This document shows, piece by piece, positions 5,669-16,476 of a stretch of DNA of 64,000 nt; the stretch's first letter is position 1, and the number at the start of each line of letters is the position of its first letter. The stretch comes from Arthrobacter luteolus NBRC 107841. Lineage in GTDB: Bacteria > Actinomycetota > Actinomycetes > Actinomycetales > Micrococcaceae. Below the pieces are notes generated by a model, which saw only the letters and a list, made by a program, of their open reading frames with translations, did not search any database and was not told where the DNA came from. Position numbers and translations under genes: made by a program. The stretch is taken from assembly GCF_001552075.1 (NCBI RefSeq), contig NZ_BCQM01000005.1:124001-188000 (forward strand), in the 5' to 3' direction.

Positions 5669-8600
5669 CTAGGCGGGTGTTCCCCTCCGGCGGCGTTCCA
5701 GCCAGAGGACTCCGGCTCCTGCAAGCAGGATCAGCAGCCCGGCCCAGAGCATCAGCATTCCAGAGCTGCCGGTGTCCGCCAGCTTGCCGTCGGTGGTAGC
5801 CTCCACGAGCGCCGGACCGCTTTCGGCTGACGGATCCTTATCGAGCGGCAGCGCCGGCCCGGGTTCCACCGGCGGCACCGGGAAGCCTGCCGAGGACCCG
5901 CCGCCGCCGGTGATGGACGCAACGTTCTCGACCACGGTTCCCGGCGCGGCGGTTACCTTCGCGGACACCGTCAACTCCCGGCTCTCGCCCGGCGCGATCC
6001 CGGCATCGTGGAGACATTCAACCAGTGAACCGGCGGGCGGACAGGTCCACCCGGTTCCCTCTGCGGAAACAAACTCCAGTCCCGCGGGCAGATTGTCCGT
6101 CACACGCACCGGAGATACGGAGGTGTTCTGGCCGGTGTTTGTCACGGTGATCAGGTAGTCGGCCTGGTGGTTGGAGTAGCCCGCCAGTTCCTTCTTGATG
6201 TTCCAGTCCACCAGCGGAAGGACGGGTGCCGTGTCGGTGGAGCTCACCGGAGGAGAGCCCGGAGCGCTGGCCGTGGCCGTGTTCTCAACCTCTGGATACG
6301 CGGCGGCCAGAACATCGACAGTCAGCACCAGTTCGGCCGAGGCACCGACGGCAAGCTCGCCCGGCAGCGCGCAGTCAAGCAGCTGGTCTGTGGCGGTGCA
6401 GGACCAGCCGTCACCGGCCGCGGAGACAAACCGGAGGGAATCCGGCAGGTCGTCGGAAAGAACCACCGGCCCGGGAGTTGCTGTCGGTCCCGTGTTGGTA
6501 ACCGTCAGGGTGTACGTTCCCTGGCTGCCGACGGCGAACCCGTCGTTGTGGACCTTGTTCAGTGCCAGCGCGGCTGAAGGATCGACGTCGAGCCGGTCGT
6601 CCGTTGTTACGCTGCCGGGCAGGTCCGGGTCCGTGGAGGAAGCCGCTGCCGTATTGACTGCCGAGGGGTAGGCAGCCGGTTCCACCATCACGGTGACGAT
6701 AATGTCATCCGCGGACTCTCCGGGAGCGAGGGTCCCCGGATGGTCACAGGAAATGGTGCCGCTGGCCTCAGTACAGGTCCAGCCGTTCCCCGTGGCGGAT
6801 TCAAACGTCAGTCCGTCCGGGAGGACGTCAGTGACCTGGACGTCCTGGACGTCGGACGTTCCGGTGTTGGTTACCGTGAGCCGGAAGTCCTTCACCTCTC
6901 CGACCGTGCCGTTGCCGACGTGAGACTTGGCAATGTCCAGGGAGAGGACCCGGTCCACAGATACCGTGGCCGTTCCGGTGTTGTTCGCCGGCGCGGGATC
7001 GGGCGTGGGTGAGGAGACAACGGCGGTATTCACCATGTCCGCTTCCGCTGCGTCCGCCGCAACCATCACGGTCAGGACCAGCGGTTCCGCGGACTCACCT
7101 GGCGCCAGCGAACCGGCATAGGTGCAGGAGATGGACTGCTGGGGATCGTGGCCGGTGGGCGCCGCACCAGGAGTGCAGATCCATCCGGTGCCGGCTGCGG
7201 ACACAAAGCTCTGGCCCGCGGGCAGCGTATCGGTGACAGTCAGCGGACCGGTTGCCGTGCTTGGCCCGTTGTTGCTGACAGCCAGGGCCCAGTCCATGGT
7301 TGTTCCGGCCTCGACGACCGCGGCCGAAGGCGCCTTGGTCAGTTCCAGGTCGGCGCTGGCAATGATCGGTACATCCACCGGCGCGGGATTGGTGACGGTC
7401 GACGGCGTGCCGCTGGTCAGTTCGGCAACGTTCTGGACGGTCAGGACCCCGTTGGCGGGGGATACCGGAACCGCCGGATCCACTGCGGCCAGCACCGTGA
7501 TCGGCGGCTGGGCGCCGAGCGCCGCCGTCGGCCGTTCACACAGGACATCCTGGCCGTGAGCCTCGCAGGACCAGCCTGCACCCGACGCCGAGACAAAGGT
7601 CAGGTACTGCGGGAGGGTGTCCCGGACTGTCACCGATTCGGCGTTGCCGGGGCCGGCGTTCGCCGCCTGCAGGGTGAACTGGGCGGTGGTTCCGGCGACG
7701 ACCGGTGCGGGCGTGTCCAGGGTCTTGACCAGCGAGAGCGCAGACTCCCGGAGAACTGTGGTCGGATCAGTGCTGTGGTTGTTGGCCGGATCCGGGTCCG
7801 GAACCGTACCGTCACCGGTCACATAGGCGGTGTTGGAAAGCTGGCCCTGGACATCCGCGGCGATGGCCACCGTCATGACCAGCGAGATTGTCCCGCCGGG
7901 CGCCAGGCTGCCCGGATAGTTGCAGGCAACCAGCTGGCCTGCGGTAGTGCAGCTCCAGCCGGCGCTGGCGGATACGAAGGACATGCCAGCCGGCAGGGTA
8001 TCCGTGACGGCCAGGGAACCGCCACCGGCAGCAAGGCTCGAATTCGACGGCCCGTTGTTGCTGACCACCAGGGTGTACGCCAGGTTTTGTCCGGCTACCG
8101 CTGCGTCGGTGTGCGATTTGGCCAGCGCAAGATCGGCGCGGGCCGTGGTGGGCCCGGTGCTGGTGCTGGTGTTCGGCGCGGGACCGGTCTCCGGGGTGCT
8201 GGTGGAAACCGACGCCGTGTTGGCAATGCTGGCGCCGCCGCTGGACGCGGAGACCAGGACGGTCAGATCGAAGCTGGTGGGGACCGCCGGTGACGCCGGG
8301 GTCAGCACACCTCCATTTGCCGTGTAGGCACAGGAGACATCCTGGTCCACGGCGGAGCACGTCCAGTCACTTCCTGAAGCGGAGACAAAAGTCAGGCGGG
8401 GATCCAGCTGATCTGTGACCACCACGTCCCGGGCCGCGGAGGGCCCGTAGTTCGTGACGGCAACGGTGTAGGTGGCCTGCTGGCCGGCGACCAGGTCCTG
8501 GGAGGACAGGACCTTGGTGATGCCAAGGTCTGTGACCTGTCCGGGAGTTGCCGTGGCGGTATCCGTGTTGTTTCCAGTCGGCTGGGGTTCTCCGTCCGGA

Positions 8601-11600
8601 GCTTCAGGGGTGACCGGAGTGACGGTGGCCGTGTTGGTGACCGCCGCCGTCGTGCTGGAATCCACTGCCAGCACGAGGCTCAGATCGTTGGCCTTGTCTC
8701 CGGCCCGCAGATCGGATCCATAGCTGCAGATGACCTTGCTGTCCGTCAGCGCTCCACAGGTCCAGTAAGTTCCGGAGGCCGAAACGAAACTGGTGCCGGC
8801 CGGAATGGTATCCGTGACCGTAAACCCGCCACGGGAAACGGACGGCCCCGCATTGCTGACGCTCAGCTTGTACGTGGCCTGCTGCCCGGCCACCATGGAA
8901 CCGGTCAGCTCCTTGCTGAGGACCAGGTCCGCATGGGCGGTGACGGTTGCCGTGGCGGTATCGGTGTTGTTTTCCGGGACCGGGTCATGGGTTTGCCCGG
9001 TGACCCGTGCGGTGTTTGTCAGGACGGCGCCCTGGCCGCCTCCGATGACCGAGTAGGTGACCGTGATCGGCTGGAACGAGGCACCGGATGCCAGTGTCCC
9101 TGTCCGTGTGCACTCCATCGTTCCGATCTGGCAGGTCCAGCCCGTACCGGACATACCGGTGACCGTGGCGGTATTCTGCAGGTCGAAAGTGTCCTTCACT
9201 GTGAACGGTCCGGCTGCTGTATCAGGGCCGTTGTTGGTCACGGTCAGGACCCAGGAGCCGTTCAAACCGGCCACAGGGGCCGTGCCGACCGTCTTCTCGA
9301 TCGAGAGGTCAGCAGAGGCAATCTTCGCTTCCGCGCTGGTGGGCGGTCCGGAGTAGCTCCCGGGCTGGTTGCCGGGTTCACCTGTCCGGTCGGTGCCTGT
9401 GGGCGTTGCCGTGTTGCGGTGTGCGGTTGCCATGCCGACCGCTGCCTCGGTCGCCGGGACGGCCTGGTAGGTGATCGTCAGCGACCGCCCGGAGGGCAGA
9501 TCACCGAGCCTTGCCCAGGTCAGGTTCCGGACTCCGGAAATATTGGGTTCGACGGCGGCTGCAGCGCCGGTGTTGACGCTGACCCGCGCGCTGTCGGCAA
9601 CGTAGGTCCAGTTCTCCGGAAGCGTGTCGGTGGCGCCGGCGGCGAAGGCCGTTCCCCGGCCGGAGTTGGTTACCGTGACCTGCCAGGTGAAAGGCTGTCC
9701 CCGGTAAGCGATGCCGCCGCCGGGAGTGGTCTTGGCGGCGGCCAGCTTCGGGAAGTCCGGTGTGACGGTCGCCGTCGCTTCGGGGCCTGTATAGGTTTGT
9801 CCAGTGTCAGCCGGGTCCGTTCCCGGCAGCGACGTGTAGGACGAAACCTTGGCGGTGTTCCTCAGGCCCGCCGCGGTCAGCTTCCCGGATGCCGCCAGCG
9901 TGGCGTTGTAGGTGAGCTGGACCGTTGCTCCAGGTGCGATCTGGGAGATGGTCCAGGTGATGGTTCCGCCCCCGGTCTGGGGGTCGGCGCCTTGCAGGGT
10001 CCCGCCGTTGCCCAGCGAGGCAGCGTCGACCAGGACATTGGAAGGTACGACGTCGGTGACCACCACGTTGTGGGCGGTGCTGGCGTTGGCGCCGCTCCAG
10101 TTGGTTGCCCGGACGGTGTAGGTGAAGTTCTCGCCGGGTTCCGGCGTGGTGTCGGAGACCACCTTGGTGATGCTGACCTTGGGCTCCAGGACCTTGACGG
10201 TGGCCGAAGCCTTCGGGCCCTCCTCATCGAAGGGATAGGCCGGGGTTGTGGGCGCCGGCTGGCTGACCGTGTCCCAGACCGGGTAGGCCGTGTTGGTCAG
10301 GATTGTCCCGGCTGCTGGTGCTGCGGTGGTGGCCAGCTTTGCCGTGTACTGCACAACGAGGAGCCGTTCCTGGGGGCTTGCCGTGAAATCGCCCAGCAGG
10401 AAGCCGGCCTTTTGTCCGTCGGCGCCCAGATAGGTCGTATTCGCACCCACAGGCGTGATGCTGTTGATGTCGATTCCGGCCGGGAGGGTATCCAGGACTG
10501 TGAGGTTGTAGAAGTTGATGTTGGCGGGAACCGTGGTTGTGACCGTGTACGTAACGGTTTCACCCTTGCGCGCTGAGGCAGGGTTCGCCGTCTTCGTTAC
10601 GGTTGCGCCAGCCACCTTGACTGCGCTTGTTGCCTGGGTGGTGTAGGTCCGGACATCGCCGTCTGCCTGGGGAGCAGTCAGGCTGCTGCCCGCGAGCCGG
10701 ACGGTGTTGGTGTAGATCAGTGACCCGGCCGTCGCGTTTTCCACCTCGGCCGTGTAAGTGCGCACTTCCGAAGCTCCGGGGGCCAGGTCGCCGAGATTCC
10801 AGCTGATGAGGGTGCTGCCGGCCGCGCAGCCGGCCTCCGCGGCAGTGAGGACCCGGTTGTCCAAACCGGTGCTGGTCAGCCGCAGTCCTTCCGGCAGGCA
10901 ATCCGTCAGGACCGCATTGTGCAGCACCGATCCGGAAGCGTTGCGCCCGGTAACGGTGTAGGTGATGACATCGCCGCCCTTGACCGTCTGGCTGGAGGCG
11001 GGGCGGTCGTTGGTTTTGGTGACTCCTGGTGCCGGTTCCACAATGCCGGTCTGGGCGGTGGCGGTCCGGTCTGCCGGGCCGGTCGCCCCCGGGTACGTTC
11101 CGGCGCCGCTCGAGAGGGTCGCGGTGTTGGTCCGGATGGTGCCGGCCGCATTGGCCTGGAGATCGGTAACCACGGCCTCAATGAGCAGGGTGAAAACCTG
11201 CTCCTGGGGTGTGCTGTTCTGATAGGTCCCAAGGTTCAGCGTGACCGTGCCATCGGTTCCCACCGCTGGAGTGGTGCTCCCGGTGTAGCCCGCCGGAACG
11301 GTGGCGCTGACCTTCGGCTGGCCGTTGTCCTGCAGCACTGCGAGGCCAGCGGGCATGGTGTCCTTGAGCACTCCGTTGTACACAGTGGTGCCTGCCGGAA
11401 TGCGGGCGGTGACGGTGTACGTCACCTTTTCCCCGATGGTTGCCTGGGTTGTGGACCCGGGCACCGGTTCCGAACCGGTGTTGCCTGCTTCGCCTACTGC
11501 CGAAGTCACGCCCTTGGCAACGGCAGCAGACGGAACCTGGACCAGCGCATCGTCCCGGACCGGGTCGGGATCCTGATCCAACTTGTCCACAGAAGTGTCA

Positions 11601-13738
11601 ATGTTCTCGCCGGGGTAGTGCGTGACGGTGCCGCCCAGGTTGGTGGCTGCTTCGTAGGAACGGACGTGAGCCGTGTTCGTCAACCGCTCGGAAACGCCCA
11701 GGTAGGAGGGCATCGTGACCTCGTAGGTCAGATCATGGCTGGCACGCGGTGCGATGTCAGCGATATTCCAGGTCAAGGCGCTGTGGTCCGCATTGCCCGC
11801 GAAGGTGGGGTGTCCGGCTGCTCCGGGGTCGGTGCAGGTGCCGCCGCCCGGATTGGTGACGTCGGTGCAGCGGATTTCTTCCGGGAGCACATCCCAGACC
11901 TGAACGTTGCTCACAGCACGGGAGGAGGTGTTACCCACTGCAAGCGTGTAGGTCACGTTGTCTCCCTGCCGCACCTGGGCCGAGGACGCTGACTTCGCGA
12001 TGCTCACCGGGGTTTTTTCGGTCAGGAAATTGACCTCATCGCGGTGCGAACGGGCCTGGCCCGCGGTGTTAGTGGCACGCAGCTTGGCCAGGTTCCCGGT
12101 CTTGTCCCCGGTCTGGGCCGGAGCGGCATTAACGATCGCGCTGAAGACAACGGTGAAGACGCTGCCGGCCGGAACTACCCGGCTTCCGCTGACGTCATCG
12201 CCCAAGGTCCAGGTGAGCAGGCCCTGGTCCGCACTGAACTGTGCCCGGGGGGTGAACCCGGACACCGTGGCGGAGCCATCCTCGTAGGTGAGGTTGGCGG
12301 GCAGGAAGTCAGTTACAACGGCGTTGCGGGTTTCCACGGCGCTGGAGAACTTCACCTGGATCTCAAAGCAGACGCGGTCACCCTTGGCGAACGTGACGTC
12401 CTCTGCCCCGGTCGGGTCGGCACGGTACTCGGCGCTCGAACACGTCATCGGAGCGGAATCGAGTCCGATCCTCTTAGTCAGCGACTCGGCGTCGGTGTTC
12501 AGGCCAGCCGACGACGGATCGGTCACGCTGATTGTTCCGGCATCCACGGTATTCGCCGGGATCGGGGTGGTGTCCGCTGTCTGGGAGACCTTGTTTTCGA
12601 AGGAGTCGCCGGCGGAGGTCGGAGTATTGTTCAGCGAGCCGCCGCTGTAGTCCTTCCGCATGAGGGCTTTGTACGTCAGCGTGATGCTGCCGTTGGCATC
12701 AACCTGGACGTTCGGTTCGAATTTCAGCGTGAAGGTGCCGGCCGCCGGGTCATGGGTGACAGAGGTGTAGGGAACCGAGGGCTCATGACCGCTCAGCCCG
12801 CAATCAGCGGGTTGTCCGGTGTAGGTACCCAGTGGGCACAATCCGTCAGGAAGGACGTCGGTGATGACGATGCCGTTGCTGGACGCGTACTCGCTGGCAT
12901 CGAGCCGGAGTGTATAGGTGACGACCTCGCCGGCATCGAATTTCTGCACGTTGGAGGACTTGAGGATGCGCAGGTCGTGCACGGTCACGGTGTGCTGGGC
13001 CTTTGTCGTCACCGCGGGCGGACCATCGGCTTCCACCTTGCCGGAGTACCGGCCGGCGGCTTCCACATAGTTGGTGGCCTCGTCGCCACCATCCACCTGA
13101 CGGGTCGGGGCGCCGGTGTTGTTGTCCAGGTTGGCGGCCTGAAGCAGGCTTTCAGGGGCGGCAGCATTTGTGAACAGGGTGTTCTCCAGCAGCGGTACGC
13201 CGGCGGCATAACGGATCTCGGTGACCTGGCCGGTAGCCATGGTGCCCAGTTCCCAGACAACCTTCGTGTAAACACCGGCCGGGTATCCCGCAGGATTCTG
13301 GACCGTCTCCACCGACTTCGGGACGATGCAGGAGGCAACAACGGGTGTTCCGGTCAGCCAGGGGGCTCCGGAATATTCGATCGATCCGCTGTTATCCACG
13401 GCTCCGCATCCGAGGAATTCGAGGTTTGCGGGCAGATAGTCCGTGACCAGTACACCGTCGGTAGCAGCGAAGGAGTTATTGGTGACCTTGACCGTGTACA
13501 CGGTGGTCTGGGTATGCACTCCGCGAAGGAGTTCCGCTTCAGGGCTGGGCTCGGACTTGGCAACTTCCAGGGCAGTCACGGCCGTTGATACCGGGCCGCT
13601 GGCTGCTGAGGCGGAGAAGCTTGTGGTCCGGGCCGTGCCGTCCGGGGCGAAGGCGGGCACCGTGCGCGGGTTCGTGTTGGAGTACACATCGGCATTGTTG
13701 CTGAACGTGTTGCCCACCGGATGGCTGGCGGGGTCCAC
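5669..13738 (-). CDS. giant DUF11-repeat surface protein, LADTG anchor (main body)
   Basis: 2689 codons of a surface protein built of about 18 DUF11 (isopeptide/adhesin-type) repeats of 110-150 residues. Each repeat shows K-x-(V/A)-x-x-G-x-x-x-TYT, VTN-x-GPS, VTDTLPAG, FVSA-x-G-x-GW-x-C and NTA-x-V. The C-terminus has the sorting signal LADTG, a hydrophobic stretch (MLMLWAGLLILLAGAGVLWL) and ERRRR, which fits cell-wall attachment by a class E (LAxTG) sortase. The body has no signal peptide of its own. GTG at 13738 is only the first in-frame start after an in-frame TAA at 13811-13813, and the same frame continues upstream into a signal peptide. As read, export would need readthrough, so the gene may be a pseudogene. 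Similar proteins act as stalks or adhesins; this one is uncharacterised. Confidence 0.85.
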   Translation of the reverse strand: MDPASHPVGNTFSNNADVYSNTNPRTVPAFAPDGTARTTSFSASAASGPVSTAVTALEVAKSEPSPEAELLRGVHTQTTVYTVKVTNNSFAATDGVLVTDYLPANLEFLGCGAVDNSGSIEYSGAPWLTGTPVVASCIVPKSVETVQNPAGYPAGVYTKVVWELGTMATGQVTEIRYAAGVPLLENTLFTNAAAPESLLQAANLDNNTGAPTRQVDGGDEATNYVEAAGRYSGKVEADGPPAVTTKAQHTVTVHDLRILKSSNVQKFDAGEVVTYTLRLDASEYASSNGIVITDVLPDGLCPLGTYTGQPADCGLSGHEPSVPYTSVTHDPAAGTFTLKFEPNVQVDANGSITLTYKALMRKDYSGGSLNNTPTSAGDSFENKVSQTADTTPIPANTVDAGTISVTDPSSAGLNTDAESLTKRIGLDSAPMTCSSAEYRADPTGAEDVTFAKGDRVCFEIQVKFSSAVETRNAVVTDFLPANLTYEDGSATVSGFTPRAQFSADQGLLTWTLGDDVSGSRVVPAGSVFTVVFSAIVNAAPAQTGDKTGNLAKLRATNTAGQARSHRDEVNFLTEKTPVSIAKSASSAQVRQGDNVTYTLAVGNTSSRAVSNVQVWDVLPEEIRCTDVTNPGGGTCTDPGAAGHPTFAGNADHSALTWNIADIAPRASHDLTYEVTMPSYLGVSERLTNTAHVRSYEAATNLGGTVTHYPGENIDTSVDKLDQDPDPVRDDALVQVPSAAVAKGVTSAVGEAGNTGSEPVPGSTTQATIGEKVTYTVTARIPAGTTVYNGVLKDTMPAGLAVLQDNGQPKVSATVPAGYTGSTTPAVGTDGTVTLNLGTYQNSTPQEQVFTLLIEAVVTDLQANAAGTIRTNTATLSSGAGTYPGATGPADRTATAQTGIVEPAPGVTKTNDRPASSQTVKGGDVITYTVTGRNASGSVLHNAVLTDCLPEGLRLTSTGLDNRVLTAAEAGCAAGSTLISWNLGDLAPGASEVRTYTAEVENATAGSLIYTNTVRLAGSSLTAPQADGDVRTYTTQATSAVKVAGATVTKTANPASARKGETVTYTVTTTVPANINFYNLTVLDTLPAGIDINSITPVGANTTYLGADGQKAGFLLGDFTASPQERLLVVQYTAKLATTAAPAAGTILTNTAYPVWDTVSQPAPTTPAYPFDEEGPKASATVKVLEPKVSITKVVSDTTPEPGENFTYTVRATNWSGANASTAHNVVVTDVVPSNVLVDAASLGNGGTLQGADPQTGGGTITWTISQIAPGATVQLTYNATLAASGKLTAAGLRNTAKVSSYTSLPGTDPADTGQTYTGPEATATVTPDFPKLAAAKTTPGGGIAYRGQPFTWQVTVTNSGRGTAFAAGATDTLPENWTYVADSARVSVNTGAAAAVEPNISGVRNLTWARLGDLPSGRSLTITYQAVPATEAAVGMATAHRNTATPTGTDRTGEPGNQPGSYSGPPTSAEAKIASADLSIEKTVGTAPVAGLNGSWVLTVTNNGPDTAAGPFTVKDTFDLQNTATVTGMSGTGWTCQIGTMECTRTGTLASGASFQPITVTYSVIGGGQGAVLTNTARVTGQTHDPVPENNTDTATATVTAHADLVLSKELTGSMVAGQQATYKLSVSNAGPSVSRGGFTVTDTIPAGTSFVSASGTYWTCGALTDSKVICSYGSDLRAGDKANDLSLVLAVDSSTTAAVTNTATVTPVTPEAPDGEPQPTGNNTDTATATPGQVTDLGITKVLSSQDLVAGQQATYTVAVTNYGPSAARDVVVTDQLDPRLTFVSASGSDWTCSAVDQDVSCAYTANGGVLTPASPAVPTSFDLTVLVSASSGGASIANTASVSTSTPETGPAPNTSTSTGPTTARADLALAKSHTDAAVAGQNLAYTLVVSNNGPSNSSLAAGGGSLAVTDTLPAGMSFVSASAGWSCTTAGQLVACNYPGSLAPGGTISLVMTVAIAADVQGQLSNTAYVTGDGTVPDPDPANNHSTDPTTVLRESALSLVKTLDTPAPVVAGTTAQFTLQAANAGPGNAESVTVRDTLPQYLTFVSASGAGWSCEAHGQDVLCERPTAALGAQPPITVLAAVDPAVPVSPANGVLTVQNVAELTSGTPSTVTNPAPVDVPIIASADLELTKAPSAAVVEAGTTMDWALAVSNNGPSTATGPLTVTDTLPAGQSFVSAAGTGWICTPGAAPTGHDPQQSISCTYAGSLAPGESAEPLVLTVMVAADAAEADMVNTAVVSSPTPDPAPANNTGTATVSVDRVLSLDIAKSHVGNGTVGEVKDFRLTVTNTGTSDVQDVQVTDVLPDGLTFESATGNGWTCTEASGTISCDHPGTLAPGESADDIIVTVMVEPAAYPSAVNTAAASSTDPDLPGSVTTDDRLDVDPSAALALNKVHNDGFAVGSQGTYTLTVTNTGPTATPGPVVLSDDLPDSLRFVSAAGDGWSCTATDQLLDCALPGELAVGASAELVLTVDVLAAAYPEVENTATASAPGSPPVSSTDTAPVLPLVDWNIKKELAGYSNHQADYLITVTNTGQNTSVSPVRVTDNLPAGLEFVSAEGTGWTCPPAGSLVECLHDAGIAPGESRELTVSAKVTAAPGTVVENVASITGGGGSSAGFPVPPVEPGPALPLDKDPSAESGPALVEATTDGKLADTGSSGMLMLWAGLLILLAGAGVLWLERRRRGTPA

Positions 13739-13810
13739 GGTAACGCTGAAGCTGATTCCGTTTGAATCGTTGGGCTGCAGGTCGAAGGCATCACGCCAAA
13801 TGAGGGTGGT

Positions 13811-14110
13811 TTACCCTGGGAGGGGCTTGTCTGCGATCACCAGCGGCTCGTTGCCTGCCGGTGTGGTGCTCCCCGGGACGTAACCGACGCCTGCGGGCAG
13901 GACATCCCGGAAGGAGACGTTGTACTGCGCTGCGCTGCCTGTGTTGGTGGCCGTGAGGGTGTAGGGCATGGACCCATTAACGAGGACGGTGTCCGGTGCC
14001 TCCTTCCCCAGGGACAACCCGGTGTCGGCAGCTGCGGCCGGCAGGGCCGGCACCACCAGTCCGGTTACCAGAACGGAAAAGGACAGCAGCAGAGCAAGCA
14101 ACCTGCGCAA
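13811..14110 (-). CDS. signal peptide and first half-repeat of the same surface protein
   Basis: 99 codons: a Sec signal peptide (MRRLLALLLSFSVLVTGLV, then PALPAAAA with a likely AxA cleavage site) followed by the first part of a DUF11 repeat (SMPYTLTATNTGSAAQYNV, DVLPAGVGYVPG). It ends at TAA 13811-13813. The next codons, in the same frame without any shift, read TTLIWRDAFDLQPNDSNG and continue the repeat into the 2689-codon body. The TAA differs by one base from CAA, AAA or GAA, so a single substitution or base-calling error is the simplest explanation. Start TTG at 14110 with a weak GGGGG upstream. Confidence 0.75.
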   Translation of the reverse strand: MRRLLALLLSFSVLVTGLVVPALPAAAADTGLSLGKEAPDTVLVNGSMPYTLTATNTGSAAQYNVSFRDVLPAGVGYVPGSTTPAGNEPLVIADKPLPG

Positions 14111-14129
14111 AAGGGGCCCCCAGAAAAAT

Positions 14130-14249
14130 TCCGCAATTTGTTAGGTTCAAAGAGCGGTTTGGATACAAACAGCACTATTCTACGAGGGGTGCAGGGGTTG
14201 ATCTGTATTATGAACCGGGCTTTACCGTATCTTGCGCTAAAATTGCGGA
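14130..14249. promoter_or_regulatory. upstream region of surface-protein gene with split inverted repeat
   Basis: AT-richer than its surroundings. TCCGCAATTT (14130-14139) and its exact reverse complement AAATTGCGGA (14240-14249) bracket 100 bases. The pair could be two operator half-sites or two sites for one regulator upstream of the adhesin gene. Confidence 0.35.
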
Positions 14250-14300
14250 TTTAAGGTGAATTCGCAGGTCACAGGCCGTCGTAATCAGGGGCACTCGGCA

Positions 14301-15776
14301 TCAGGCCGGGTCCAGGTCCCGGACAGCCGGGCCTTCCAGCAGCTCACCCGAGGCGCTGAAGCGCGAGCCATGCAGTGGGCAGTCCCAGGAAGTTTCGGCG
14401 TCATTCCAGCTAAGGATGCCATGCAGATGCGGGCAGATGGCGGACCGCCGGGTTGTCACGCCGTTGATAGTACAAACTGCTACCGGGGACCCGCCTTCCC
14501 GCACAACAATGCCAAGCCCTTCACCTGGCGCGGCATCGGTGCTGCGGGCCAGCCCACCGGCCCAGCCGCTGATCATCTGCAGTGCCACTTCGGTGTTGTC
14601 TTTCATGGTCGTCACGGCATCGGGGACGCTGATCCTGGCTTTAAAGAGATTCCCGGCAGGATCCGGCCCGCCCAGGATCCGGGAGCTGATTGAGAGGGCA
14701 GCAGCCACGCCGTTGGTCATTCCCCATTTGTTGAACCCGGTCGCAGCGTAGATCCGCCGTCCAAGCACCGGGAGCTCTCCCACGTACGGGACGGCCGCCG
14801 CCGGCTGGTAGTCCTGCGCAGACCACTGATAGTGCGCTTCCTCCACAGCAAAGTGCCCGCGGGTCCAGCGGGAGATATCCGCCAGCCGGTCCCTGGTGTG
14901 GGCGGCCCGGCCCACAGGATGCCCATTCCCGCCAACCAGGAGGTACCTGCCGCCTCCTGCTTCCGCCGTCCGCAGTGATCTGGCCGGCTGATCCACGGAG
15001 AGGTACATGCCTTCCGGCACCGGGCCGGTCACGGGGAAAGCTGCGGCGTAGGAACGCATCGGCTTCACAACGGCGAAGTATCCGCCGCGGTCCAGAATCG
15101 GAATTCCTGTTGCCAGGACGGCAGAATCGGCCTCCAGATCGCCCGCGGCAGTCACGACCCGTATCCGGTCGCCGGTATGCCTCACATCCGTGACGCGGAT
15201 TCCCTGCACCAGCACCCCCGACCGCCGCCTCAATTCCGCGGCAAGTGCAGCCAGTGCTTCGATCGGGTGGAACTGGGCCTGGCCAGGGAGTTTCAGGGCA
15301 GCCTGGACGGGGAAGGGGAGCCCGGTTTCCTTGCTGCTTTGAACAGTCAGGCCCGCAGCACGGCAGGCATCCCGTTCCTCCGCCAGGACGGACGCACCCT
15401 GGTCCGTGACGGCGTAGGTCCAGGCATCTCGCACCTCATAACTGACCCCTGCATCGGTGCAGAACTGCAGCAGCCAATCCTTTCCCCGCCGGTTTGCGTC
15501 GAGGTATTCGGTAGCGGTTCCGGTGTTGTGATGCTTTGCCACCGCGGAAACCACACTGCCCTGCAGCAGGCTGACTTTTGCCGTCGTGTGGCCGGTGGTG
15601 ACCGCCCCGGCCTGGCGTGCCTCAAGCACCGCCACCCGCTGGCCGCCCCGGGCCAGCAGGACGGCGCACACCAGGCCGGTGAGTCCGGCTCCGATAACCA
15701 CCGTGTCATAGGACGTGCCCGGGGCGAAGGGGTCCGTGGGAATGGCTGGCGCGGTATCGATCCAAAGGGACTCCAT
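14301..15776 (-). CDS. FAD-dependent oxidoreductase with C-terminal Rieske domain
   Basis: 491 residues. A DadA-like FAD domain starts with VVIGAGLTG (dinucleotide motif 29-34), and a Rieske [2Fe-2S] domain occupies the last 90 residues with ligands C448, H450 and C466, H469 (CPHLHG ... CPLHGSRF). The domain pair oxidises an amine or amino-acid-like substrate and passes electrons to the cluster; the true substrate is unknown. ATG at 15776 has AGGAAGGA 5 nt upstream, so a 68-codon upstream extension of the frame is not used. Divergent from the DUF4383 gene. Confidence 0.88.
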   Translation of the reverse strand: MESLWIDTAPAIPTDPFAPGTSYDTVVIGAGLTGLVCAVLLARGGQRVAVLEARQAGAVTTGHTTAKVSLLQGSVVSAVAKHHNTGTATEYLDANRRGKDWLLQFCTDAGVSYEVRDAWTYAVTDQGASVLAEERDACRAAGLTVQSSKETGLPFPVQAALKLPGQAQFHPIEALAALAAELRRRSGVLVQGIRVTDVRHTGDRIRVVTAAGDLEADSAVLATGIPILDRGGYFAVVKPMRSYAAAFPVTGPVPEGMYLSVDQPARSLRTAEAGGGRYLLVGGNGHPVGRAAHTRDRLADISRWTRGHFAVEEAHYQWSAQDYQPAAAVPYVGELPVLGRRIYAATGFNKWGMTNGVAAALSISSRILGGPDPAGNLFKARISVPDAVTTMKDNTEVALQMISGWAGGLARSTDAAPGEGLGIVVREGGSPVAVCTINGVTTRRSAICPHLHGILSWNDAETSWDCPLHGSRFSASGELLEGPAVRDLDPA

Positions 15777-15978
15777 GACGGTCCTTCCTGGGCGGGCCTC
15801 CAGCCCACAGGTTCGGAGGCCATCCGTCAAGGTTCCTGCCCGCTCCGGTCGCCACCCCCGAAGGGAGATAGTAAGCCTACTTCCCAACCGGCAGTGACTG
15901 TGCCACAGTTTAATGCGTACGATTACGGGCCTCCGTATGGCCGGAGTCCACACTCTCCGCCGGAGATAGGAGTTGGCC

Positions 15979-16476
15979 ATGTCATACGCAAGCAGCAGTC
16001 AAGGGCTTTCCGCCCGAAGGACAACCGCCCAAGTGGCAGCCCTTGTTTTTGGCATTGTTTTCCTGGTGATCGGCGTCCTTGGTTTTATCCCCGGAATAAC
16101 CACTAACTACAGTGCGCTCTACTTTTCCGGCTACGATTCCGAGGCCGTCCTGCTTGGAGTTTTCCAGGTTTCCGTGCTGCACAATGTGGTTCACCTCCTC
16201 CTTGGATTCCTGGGGTTGTGGATGGCCAGAACACATTCATCCGCCAAGACGTACCTCATCGGTGCTGGCGTCCTGTACCTGCTCCTGTTTATTTACGGAT
16301 TGATCATTCCGCTGAACGGGGCCTGGAACTTTGTGCCGTTTAACTGGGCGGACAACTGGCTGCACCTTGGACTGGGAGCCGTGATGATCATTCTCGGTTT
16401 CGTTCTCGGGGATCAGCGCGTCCGCAGCGGAAGCGGCAGCCGGGGCTCCCCCGGAGAAGGCAGCATTCCGAACTAG
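15979..16476 (+). CDS. DUF4383 membrane protein
   Basis: 165 residues with four predicted membrane helices (VAALVFGIVFLVIGVLGF, NVVHLLLGFLGLWMA, YLIGAGVLYLLLFIYGLI, LHLGLGAVMIILGFVLG) and a short Gly/Ser-rich cytosolic tail. Matches the character of DUF4383, a family common in Actinobacteria; function unknown. ATG at 15979 is preceded by AGGAG at 6 nt. Confidence 0.85.
   Translation: MSYASSSQGLSARRTTAQVAALVFGIVFLVIGVLGFIPGITTNYSALYFSGYDSEAVLLGVFQVSVLHNVVHLLLGFLGLWMARTHSSAKTYLIGAGVLYLLLFIYGLIIPLNGAWNFVPFNWADNWLHLGLGAVMIILGFVLGDQRVRSGSGSRGSPGEGSIPN

What the first reader, a model, noticed from the sequence alone, without database searches (positions are those of the whole stretch)
13738..14110. 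In-frame TAA splits a giant anchored surface protein from its signal peptide
Seen directly: the frame from the signal peptide (TTG 14110) runs into TAA at 13811-13813 and then continues in the same frame, with no shift, as TTLIWRDAFDLQPNDSNG into the 2689-codon DUF11 body ending in LADTG. The junction falls inside one DUF11 repeat and the TAA is one base from CAA, AAA or GAA. Without readthrough the body cannot be exported. Options are sequencing error, a fresh nonsense mutation (adhesin silenced), or tolerated readthrough. The rest of the 8-kb frame is intact, so the event must be recent.
Basis: seen in the sequence. Interest (0 to 1): 0.75.

Follow-up and report, generated by a model that had tools for sequence, protein, structure and literature searches.

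The report
Recently interrupted giant surface-protein gene
A very large cell-wall protein gene in a bacterium related to Arthrobacter carries a single stop codon shortly after its export signal, which its relatives lack; most likely this switched the protein off recently, an ordinary kind of gene loss.

Summary
On the minus strand the frame that begins with a signal peptide-like start (TTG 14110) meets TAA at 13811-13813 and continues unshifted for 2713 sense codons to an LADTG sorting signal. The stop lies inside a DUF11 domain. The syntenic gene of Arthrobacter pullicola is one open frame of 2843 aa, 88.9% identical, and the TAA is the only stop in the alignment. None of 55 relatives has a stop at this codon.

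The body shows no decay: dN/dS 0.206, equal lineage-only amino-acid changes (56 and 56), and no second stop where about 22-26 would be expected on a wholly neutral branch. The stop is therefore recent.

Readthrough as an evolved device is not supported: TAA, release-factor genes present, none of 53 tRNA genes found reads a stop, stop not shared with relatives.

Best reading: a fresh nonsense mutation that silences a fibrillar surface protein. A sequence error cannot be excluded. Ordinary; low interest.

The parts
14027..14110 (-). Start (TTG 14110) and signal peptide-like N-terminus of the interrupted gene (28 codons)
   Evidence: Translation: basic start, hydrophobic core, small residues before DTG. 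No signal-peptide program was available; the call is by eye. The TTG and the peptide are conserved in A. pullicola.
13814..14110 (-). 99-codon open piece before the stop: signal peptide plus first half of a DUF11 domain
   Evidence: PF01345 29.7 bits, profile 3-56 of 114.
13811..13813 (-). In-frame TAA; sense codon at the aligned place in 55 of 55 relatives
13673..14008 (-). DUF11 domain that spans the TAA
   Evidence: G000:C5:137673-138008, 34.1 bits, one TAA inside.
5669..13810 (-). Body of the giant protein: 2713 sense codons of DUF11-type and isopeptide-forming domains, then LADTG sorting signal and final stop
   Evidence: DUF11 680 bits, 15 stretches; TIGR01451 17 stretches; TIGR04226 6 stretches; LPXTG anchor.
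5669..13738 (-). ORF that a gene caller would list (GTG 13738, the first in-frame ATG/GTG/TTG after the TAA); no Shine-Dalgarno-like stretch by eye and no signal peptide
14301..15980 (-). Upstream neighbour, same strand, 559 aa, C-terminal Rieske-like sequence by eye (recalled motif, not tested); syntenic in A. pullicola

Best explanation
The locus is the gene of a giant sortase-anchored fibrillar surface protein (stalk of DUF11/CLIPPER-type domains) that took a single nonsense substitution in its first DUF11 domain. Ribosomes starting at TTG 14110 end at the TAA and release a 99-residue fragment that holds half a domain (inferred: secreted and unstable). Any internal restart, for instance at GTG 13738, would give a body without export signal, so little or no full-length protein should reach the wall. 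The lesion is recent and, among the genomes examined, specific to this one; everything downstream still looks as if under selection. Shown: the stop, its absence from relatives, the open body, the even rate of change. Inferred: lack of export and loss of the surface fibre.
For: In-frame TAA with unshifted continuation. The whole gene aligns as one HSP over 2843 residues at 88.9% with one stop to A. pullicola, whose gene is open, in a region syntenic at about 86-89% DNA identity. Stop inside a DUF11 domain. Sense codon in 55 of 55 relatives (60 rows, less the window's own copy and four duplicate fetches; recount). dN/dS 0.206 in the body, 0.227 in the 99 codons before it; relative-rate test 56 against 56 in the body with L009 as outgroup. 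No second stop where 21.9-25.8 are expected over a wholly neutral branch, so at most 0.12-0.14 of the branch; the rate test gives about 0.10. Single in-frame stops of other kinds at other places in 2 of the 44 relatives whose frame end is held (L052 TAG, L026 TGA) suggest that such lesions recur in the family without a fixed site. A class E sortase, whose known signal is LAXTG (PMC5148588, passages), lies on the same contig (NF033747, 256.9 bits, cut-off 160).
Against: Reads are not available, so a base-call error would give the same picture. No second isolate of the species could be searched. Low dN/dS is also what tolerated readthrough predicts, and one study argues that many in-frame stops in bacterial genes are tolerated (PMC7918605, abstract and passages). 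Divergence along the gene is a mosaic (dS 0.058 to 0.702 in blocks of about 300 columns), so a single branch length is a simplification.
Confidence: 0.72

Rival explanations
1. Sequencing, assembly or culture artefact: the organism carries a sense codon here and the gene is whole.
For: Everything else in the 8.4-kb frame is open and evolves normally, which is what an error predicts. Isolated stops or frame breaks in relatives, most of them from metagenome assemblies, may be errors too.
Against: The genome is of good quality by its figures (100% complete, 0.13% contamination, 32 contigs). Among 46 A. pullicola frames mapped to the window (overlapping each other by less than 40%), this is the only stop inside a well-conserved frame after a conserved start; the other 10 stops lie at the very ends or in poorly conserved frames. 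Isolated substitution errors in such assemblies are rare (own knowledge).
Confidence: 0.17
2. The stop is real but enough ribosomes read through it for the surface protein to be made at a lower or variable level.
For: Body open with low dN/dS; general claim of frequent tolerated in-frame stops in bacteria (PMC7918605, abstract and passages).
Against: TAA is called the least leaky stop and is read by both RF1 and RF2 (PMC6764699, passages). Three frames with the RF-1 domain, of 399, 376 and 164 aa, are present, taken as prfB, prfA and arfB by length (recalled). None of the 53 tRNA genes found has an anticodon for a stop codon. The stop is not shared by any of 55 relatives. The 83 bases from the stop on fold no better than shuffles (z -0.54). 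Readthrough measured for two other stops was 0.08% (UGA) and 0.01% (UAG) in a passage of PMC9481147; UAA was not among the readthrough reporters named in the passages seen.
Confidence: 0.09
3. The two pieces are separate working genes: a small secreted peptide and a cytoplasmic or otherwise exported DUF11 protein that starts at or near GTG 13738.
For: Both frames are open and show dN/dS well below 1.
Against: The split falls in the middle of one domain. None of 55 relatives is split there. The body keeps a wall-sorting signal that is useless without export. No Shine-Dalgarno-like stretch before GTG 13738 by eye.
Confidence: 0.02

Closest known systems
Recent nonsense pseudogenes of bacterial surface proteins
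   Same: One premature stop in a large, otherwise open surface-protein gene; accessory gene (2 of 29 genomes of the genus, own included).
   Different: No functional test; presence in a second isolate unknown.
Fibrillar adhesins with DUF11 (CLIPPER) stalks
   Same: Signal peptide-like start, long array of DUF11 and isopeptide-forming domains, sorting signal (architecture described in PMC12617251 and PMC9210967, passages).
   Different: Interrupted in the first domain; no known adhesive domain among the Pfam matches.
   Same: Syntenic orthologue, 88.9% identical over 2843 residues.
   Different: Uninterrupted; the window copy also lacks one block of 29 residues near the C-terminus.

Membership tests
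Nonsense-disrupted gene (recent pseudogene) | In-frame stop well before the natural end, with homologous frame continuing | tested here: met
Nonsense-disrupted gene (recent pseudogene) | Orthologues without the stop | tested here: met
   55 of 55 relatives have a sense codon there; A. pullicola open over 2843 aa.
Nonsense-disrupted gene (recent pseudogene) | Loss of the gene product | not testable with these tools
   Needs proteomics or immunoblot.
Nonsense-disrupted gene (recent pseudogene) | Stop present in raw reads | not testable with these tools
   No reads are held.
Sortase-anchored fibrillar adhesin with DUF11 stalk | Tandem DUF11-type domains | tested here: met
   15 DUF11 stretches; 17 TIGR01451 and 6 TIGR04226 stretches.
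Sortase-anchored fibrillar adhesin with DUF11 stalk | C-terminal sorting signal and matching sortase | tested here: met
   LADTG, TIGR01167 at 16.7 bits (cut-off 15.9); one of four sortases is class E, NF033747 at 256.9 bits (cut-off 160); the other three match class F best, below its cut-off when the domain alone was given.
Sortase-anchored fibrillar adhesin with DUF11 stalk | Signal peptide in the same translated frame as the body | tested here: not met
   Separated by the TAA in this genome; met in A. pullicola. Hence filed as an interrupted gene of this family, not as a working member.
Sortase-anchored fibrillar adhesin with DUF11 stalk | Adhesive activity | not testable with these tools
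   No known adhesive domain among Pfam matches.
Programmed stop-codon readthrough | Stop conserved at the site in relatives | tested here: not met
   0 of 55 relatives.
Programmed stop-codon readthrough | Leaky stop, suppressor tRNA or stimulating structure | tested here: not met
   TAA; none of 53 tRNA genes found reads a stop; fold z -0.54.

The most novel reading that the evidence does not exclude
The TAA is a short-lived off-state of an accessory giant surface fibre: lineages of this group switch the fibre off by nonsense changes and regain it by recombination with relatives, for which the mosaic divergence along the gene would be the trace.
Probability: 0.07. Interest if true: 0.45.

Novelty: new member of a known kind. 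Interest (0 to 1): 0.17.

Why it matters
It is a roughly dated example of how a costly surface fibre can be lost by one base change while the rest of an 8-kb gene still looks intact, and a warning that gene callers will list a signal-less 2689-aa 'protein' here. It says nothing new about translation unless proteomics shows the full-length product.

Tried and rejected
Frameshift instead of substitution: rejected, the frame is the same on both sides and the alignment to A. pullicola is one HSP. Phase variation by slippage: no homopolymer of five or more and no unit of 2-4 bases repeated four or more times in 203 bases around the stop. Suppressor tRNA: 53 tRNA genes found by Rfam, all 53 read by ARAGORN, none with an anticodon for TAA, TAG or TGA; a tRNA below the Rfam threshold would be missed. 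Paralogue that replaces the gene: no other DUF11 match over the family cut-off in the genome, one weak match of 22.1 bits on another contig. Stimulating RNA structure: z -0.54. Promoter or terminator in 13700-14320: none by a sigma-70-type scan, weak evidence in this group. A second allele in viral contigs: 0 matches.

Other interrupted genes in the window: of 46 A. pullicola frames mapped, 11 show a stop. Apart from the giant gene, seven have it within the first 43 residues or the last 10 of the query (probably misplaced starts or ends; not tested further), and three have it at residues 116-145 in frames of only 60-79% identity, taken as spurious or over-extended.

Literature, listings only: DUF11 with Arthrobacter gave 2 papers, unrelated by title and start of abstract; some searches gave papers on single surface or membrane proteins, on genomes of particular bacteria and on pseudogenes in general, from which only PMC7918605 was opened; one search gave nothing on short tRNA-Leu by title and start of abstract. 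PMC8035907 was opened for A. pullicola, but the held part has no occurrence. I claim nothing about what is not in print.

Results against a clean story: the uniqueness of the stop rests on one genome per species, and some of the 55 records are close to each other. The relatives' frames are not all clean: of 44 relatives whose frame end is held (11 of 55 run off the contig), L052 (Leucobacter sp. Ag1) has a TAG and L026 (a MAG) a TGA inside the homologous frame; L044 and L051 have a same-frame match running 222 and 78 bases past their stop, which may be natural ends; L016, L056, L058 and L059 (MAGs) show likely frame breaks. The scan alone did not flag L016 and L059, which one search showed; one search printed only 9 of 55, so the count of frame breaks is a lower bound. 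Before the stop the rate test gives 1 window-only and 5 pullicola-only changes, and third positions over the whole gene 189 and 164. One search compared a sequence with itself by mistake and is not used.

Full report
Observation. The minus-strand frame from TTG 14110 reads a signal peptide-like start and 99 codons, meets TAA at 13813-13811, and goes on in the same frame for 2713 sense codons to LADTG, a hydrophobic stretch and a basic tail. The ORF a gene caller would give starts at GTG 13738 and has 2689 codons. A DUF11 domain is matched across the stop (window 13673-14008, 34.1 bits, cut-off 24.6, one TAA inside), and the piece before the stop matches only the first half of the profile.

What the gene is. 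The body has 15 DUF11 stretches, and 17 TIGR01451 and 6 isopeptide-domain stretches plus a sorting signal: the stalk of a fibrillar adhesin as described for DUF11, renamed CLIPPER (PMC12617251, PMC9210967; passages). A class E sortase, the class that uses LAXTG signals (PMC5148588, passages), is on the same contig about 16 kb beyond the gene's 3' end, outside the window (G000:C5:113016-113411). The gene is accessory: 2 of 29 genomes of the genus have it, the window's own included. No adhesive domain is recognised by Pfam, so 'adhesin' rests on architecture.

The stop against relatives. The window is syntenic with A. pullicola at about 86-89% DNA identity. The pullicola gene is one open frame of 2843 aa; the window's gene aligns to it in one piece at 88.9% with the TAA as the only stop. 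The genome scan gave 53 loci; with two more, and after removal of the window's own copy and four duplicate fetches, there are 55 relatives, by record title mostly actinobacterial, with a few Candidatus Dormiibacterota and unclassified bins. None has a stop at this codon, and in each the frame is open for at least 111 codons before it, as far as the contig goes. For distant relatives the aligned codon may be off by a residue or so, since the position was extrapolated without gaps from matches that begin within the first six residues.

How recent. dN/dS against pullicola is 0.206 for 2712 codons after the stop and 0.227 for 99 before it. With Arthrobacter sp. GMC3 (L009) as outgroup, window-only and pullicola-only amino-acid changes in the body are 56 and 56; before the stop 1 and 5; over the whole gene, codon positions 1 and 2 give 107 and 111, position 3 gives 189 and 164. 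The body offers 570 single-base routes to a stop; a fully neutral branch would have made 21.9 to 25.8 further stops, and there are none, so the neutral part is at most about 0.12-0.14 of the branch; the rate test gives about 0.10. These limits assume one branch length, although dS runs from 0.058 to 0.702 along the gene, a sign of recombination between lineages (inference).

Mechanism. Termination at the TAA leaves a fragment with half a domain. The first ATG, GTG or TTG after it in frame is GTG 13738, without a Shine-Dalgarno-like stretch by eye and without a signal peptide. So the body should not reach the wall (inferred). Readthrough as an evolved device is disfavoured: TAA is called the least leaky stop and is read by both release factors (PMC6764699, passages); release-factor genes are present; none of the 53 tRNA genes found reads a stop; the bases after the stop fold like shuffles; no relative examined shares the stop. 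Against certainty, one study holds that many in-frame stops in bacterial genes with low dN/dS are tolerated (PMC7918605, abstract and passages), and low dN/dS here cannot separate a very recent null from readthrough.

Recurrence. Among the 44 relatives whose frame end is held, Leucobacter sp. Ag1 (L052) has a TAG and a MAG (L026) a TGA inside the otherwise homologous frame, at other places; four MAGs (L016, L056, L058, L059) show likely frame breaks, a lower bound. Different codons at different sites fit occasional loss of a costly gene, or errors, better than a conserved device.

Verdict. Most likely a fresh nonsense mutation that silences an accessory giant surface fibre (0.72), next a sequence error (0.17), then meaningful readthrough (0.09). 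Ordinary; interest 0.17.

Noticed in passing
window 5669-13810: Divergence from A. pullicola along the giant gene is a mosaic: dS about 0.70 just after the stop, 0.06-0.07 in the middle (alignment columns 1043-1643), 0.46 at the end. This suggests recombination between lineages.
   Followed up: partly
window 14027-14110: The first 28 codons differ from A. pullicola by only 3 changes (dS 0.037) while the next 71 codons have dS 0.547; the DNA just before the start is also well conserved. Constraint on the 5' end of the mRNA or a recombination edge could explain it.
   Followed up: partly
near the C-terminus of the protein of window 5669-13810: One 29-residue block present in A. pullicola is missing from the window's protein.
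   Followed up: no
L052 11744-11746: The giant DUF11 protein of Leucobacter sp. Ag1 has a single in-frame TAG with the homologous frame continuing for about 7 kb.
   Followed up: partly
L125 76-150 (G000:C3:172505-172579): A tRNA with anticodon UAA (called Leu by ARAGORN) is only 75 bases long, without the long variable arm expected of tRNA-Leu (recalled). Close matches (91-100%) exist in 25 of 25 genomes of the genus searched, the window's own included.
   Followed up: partly
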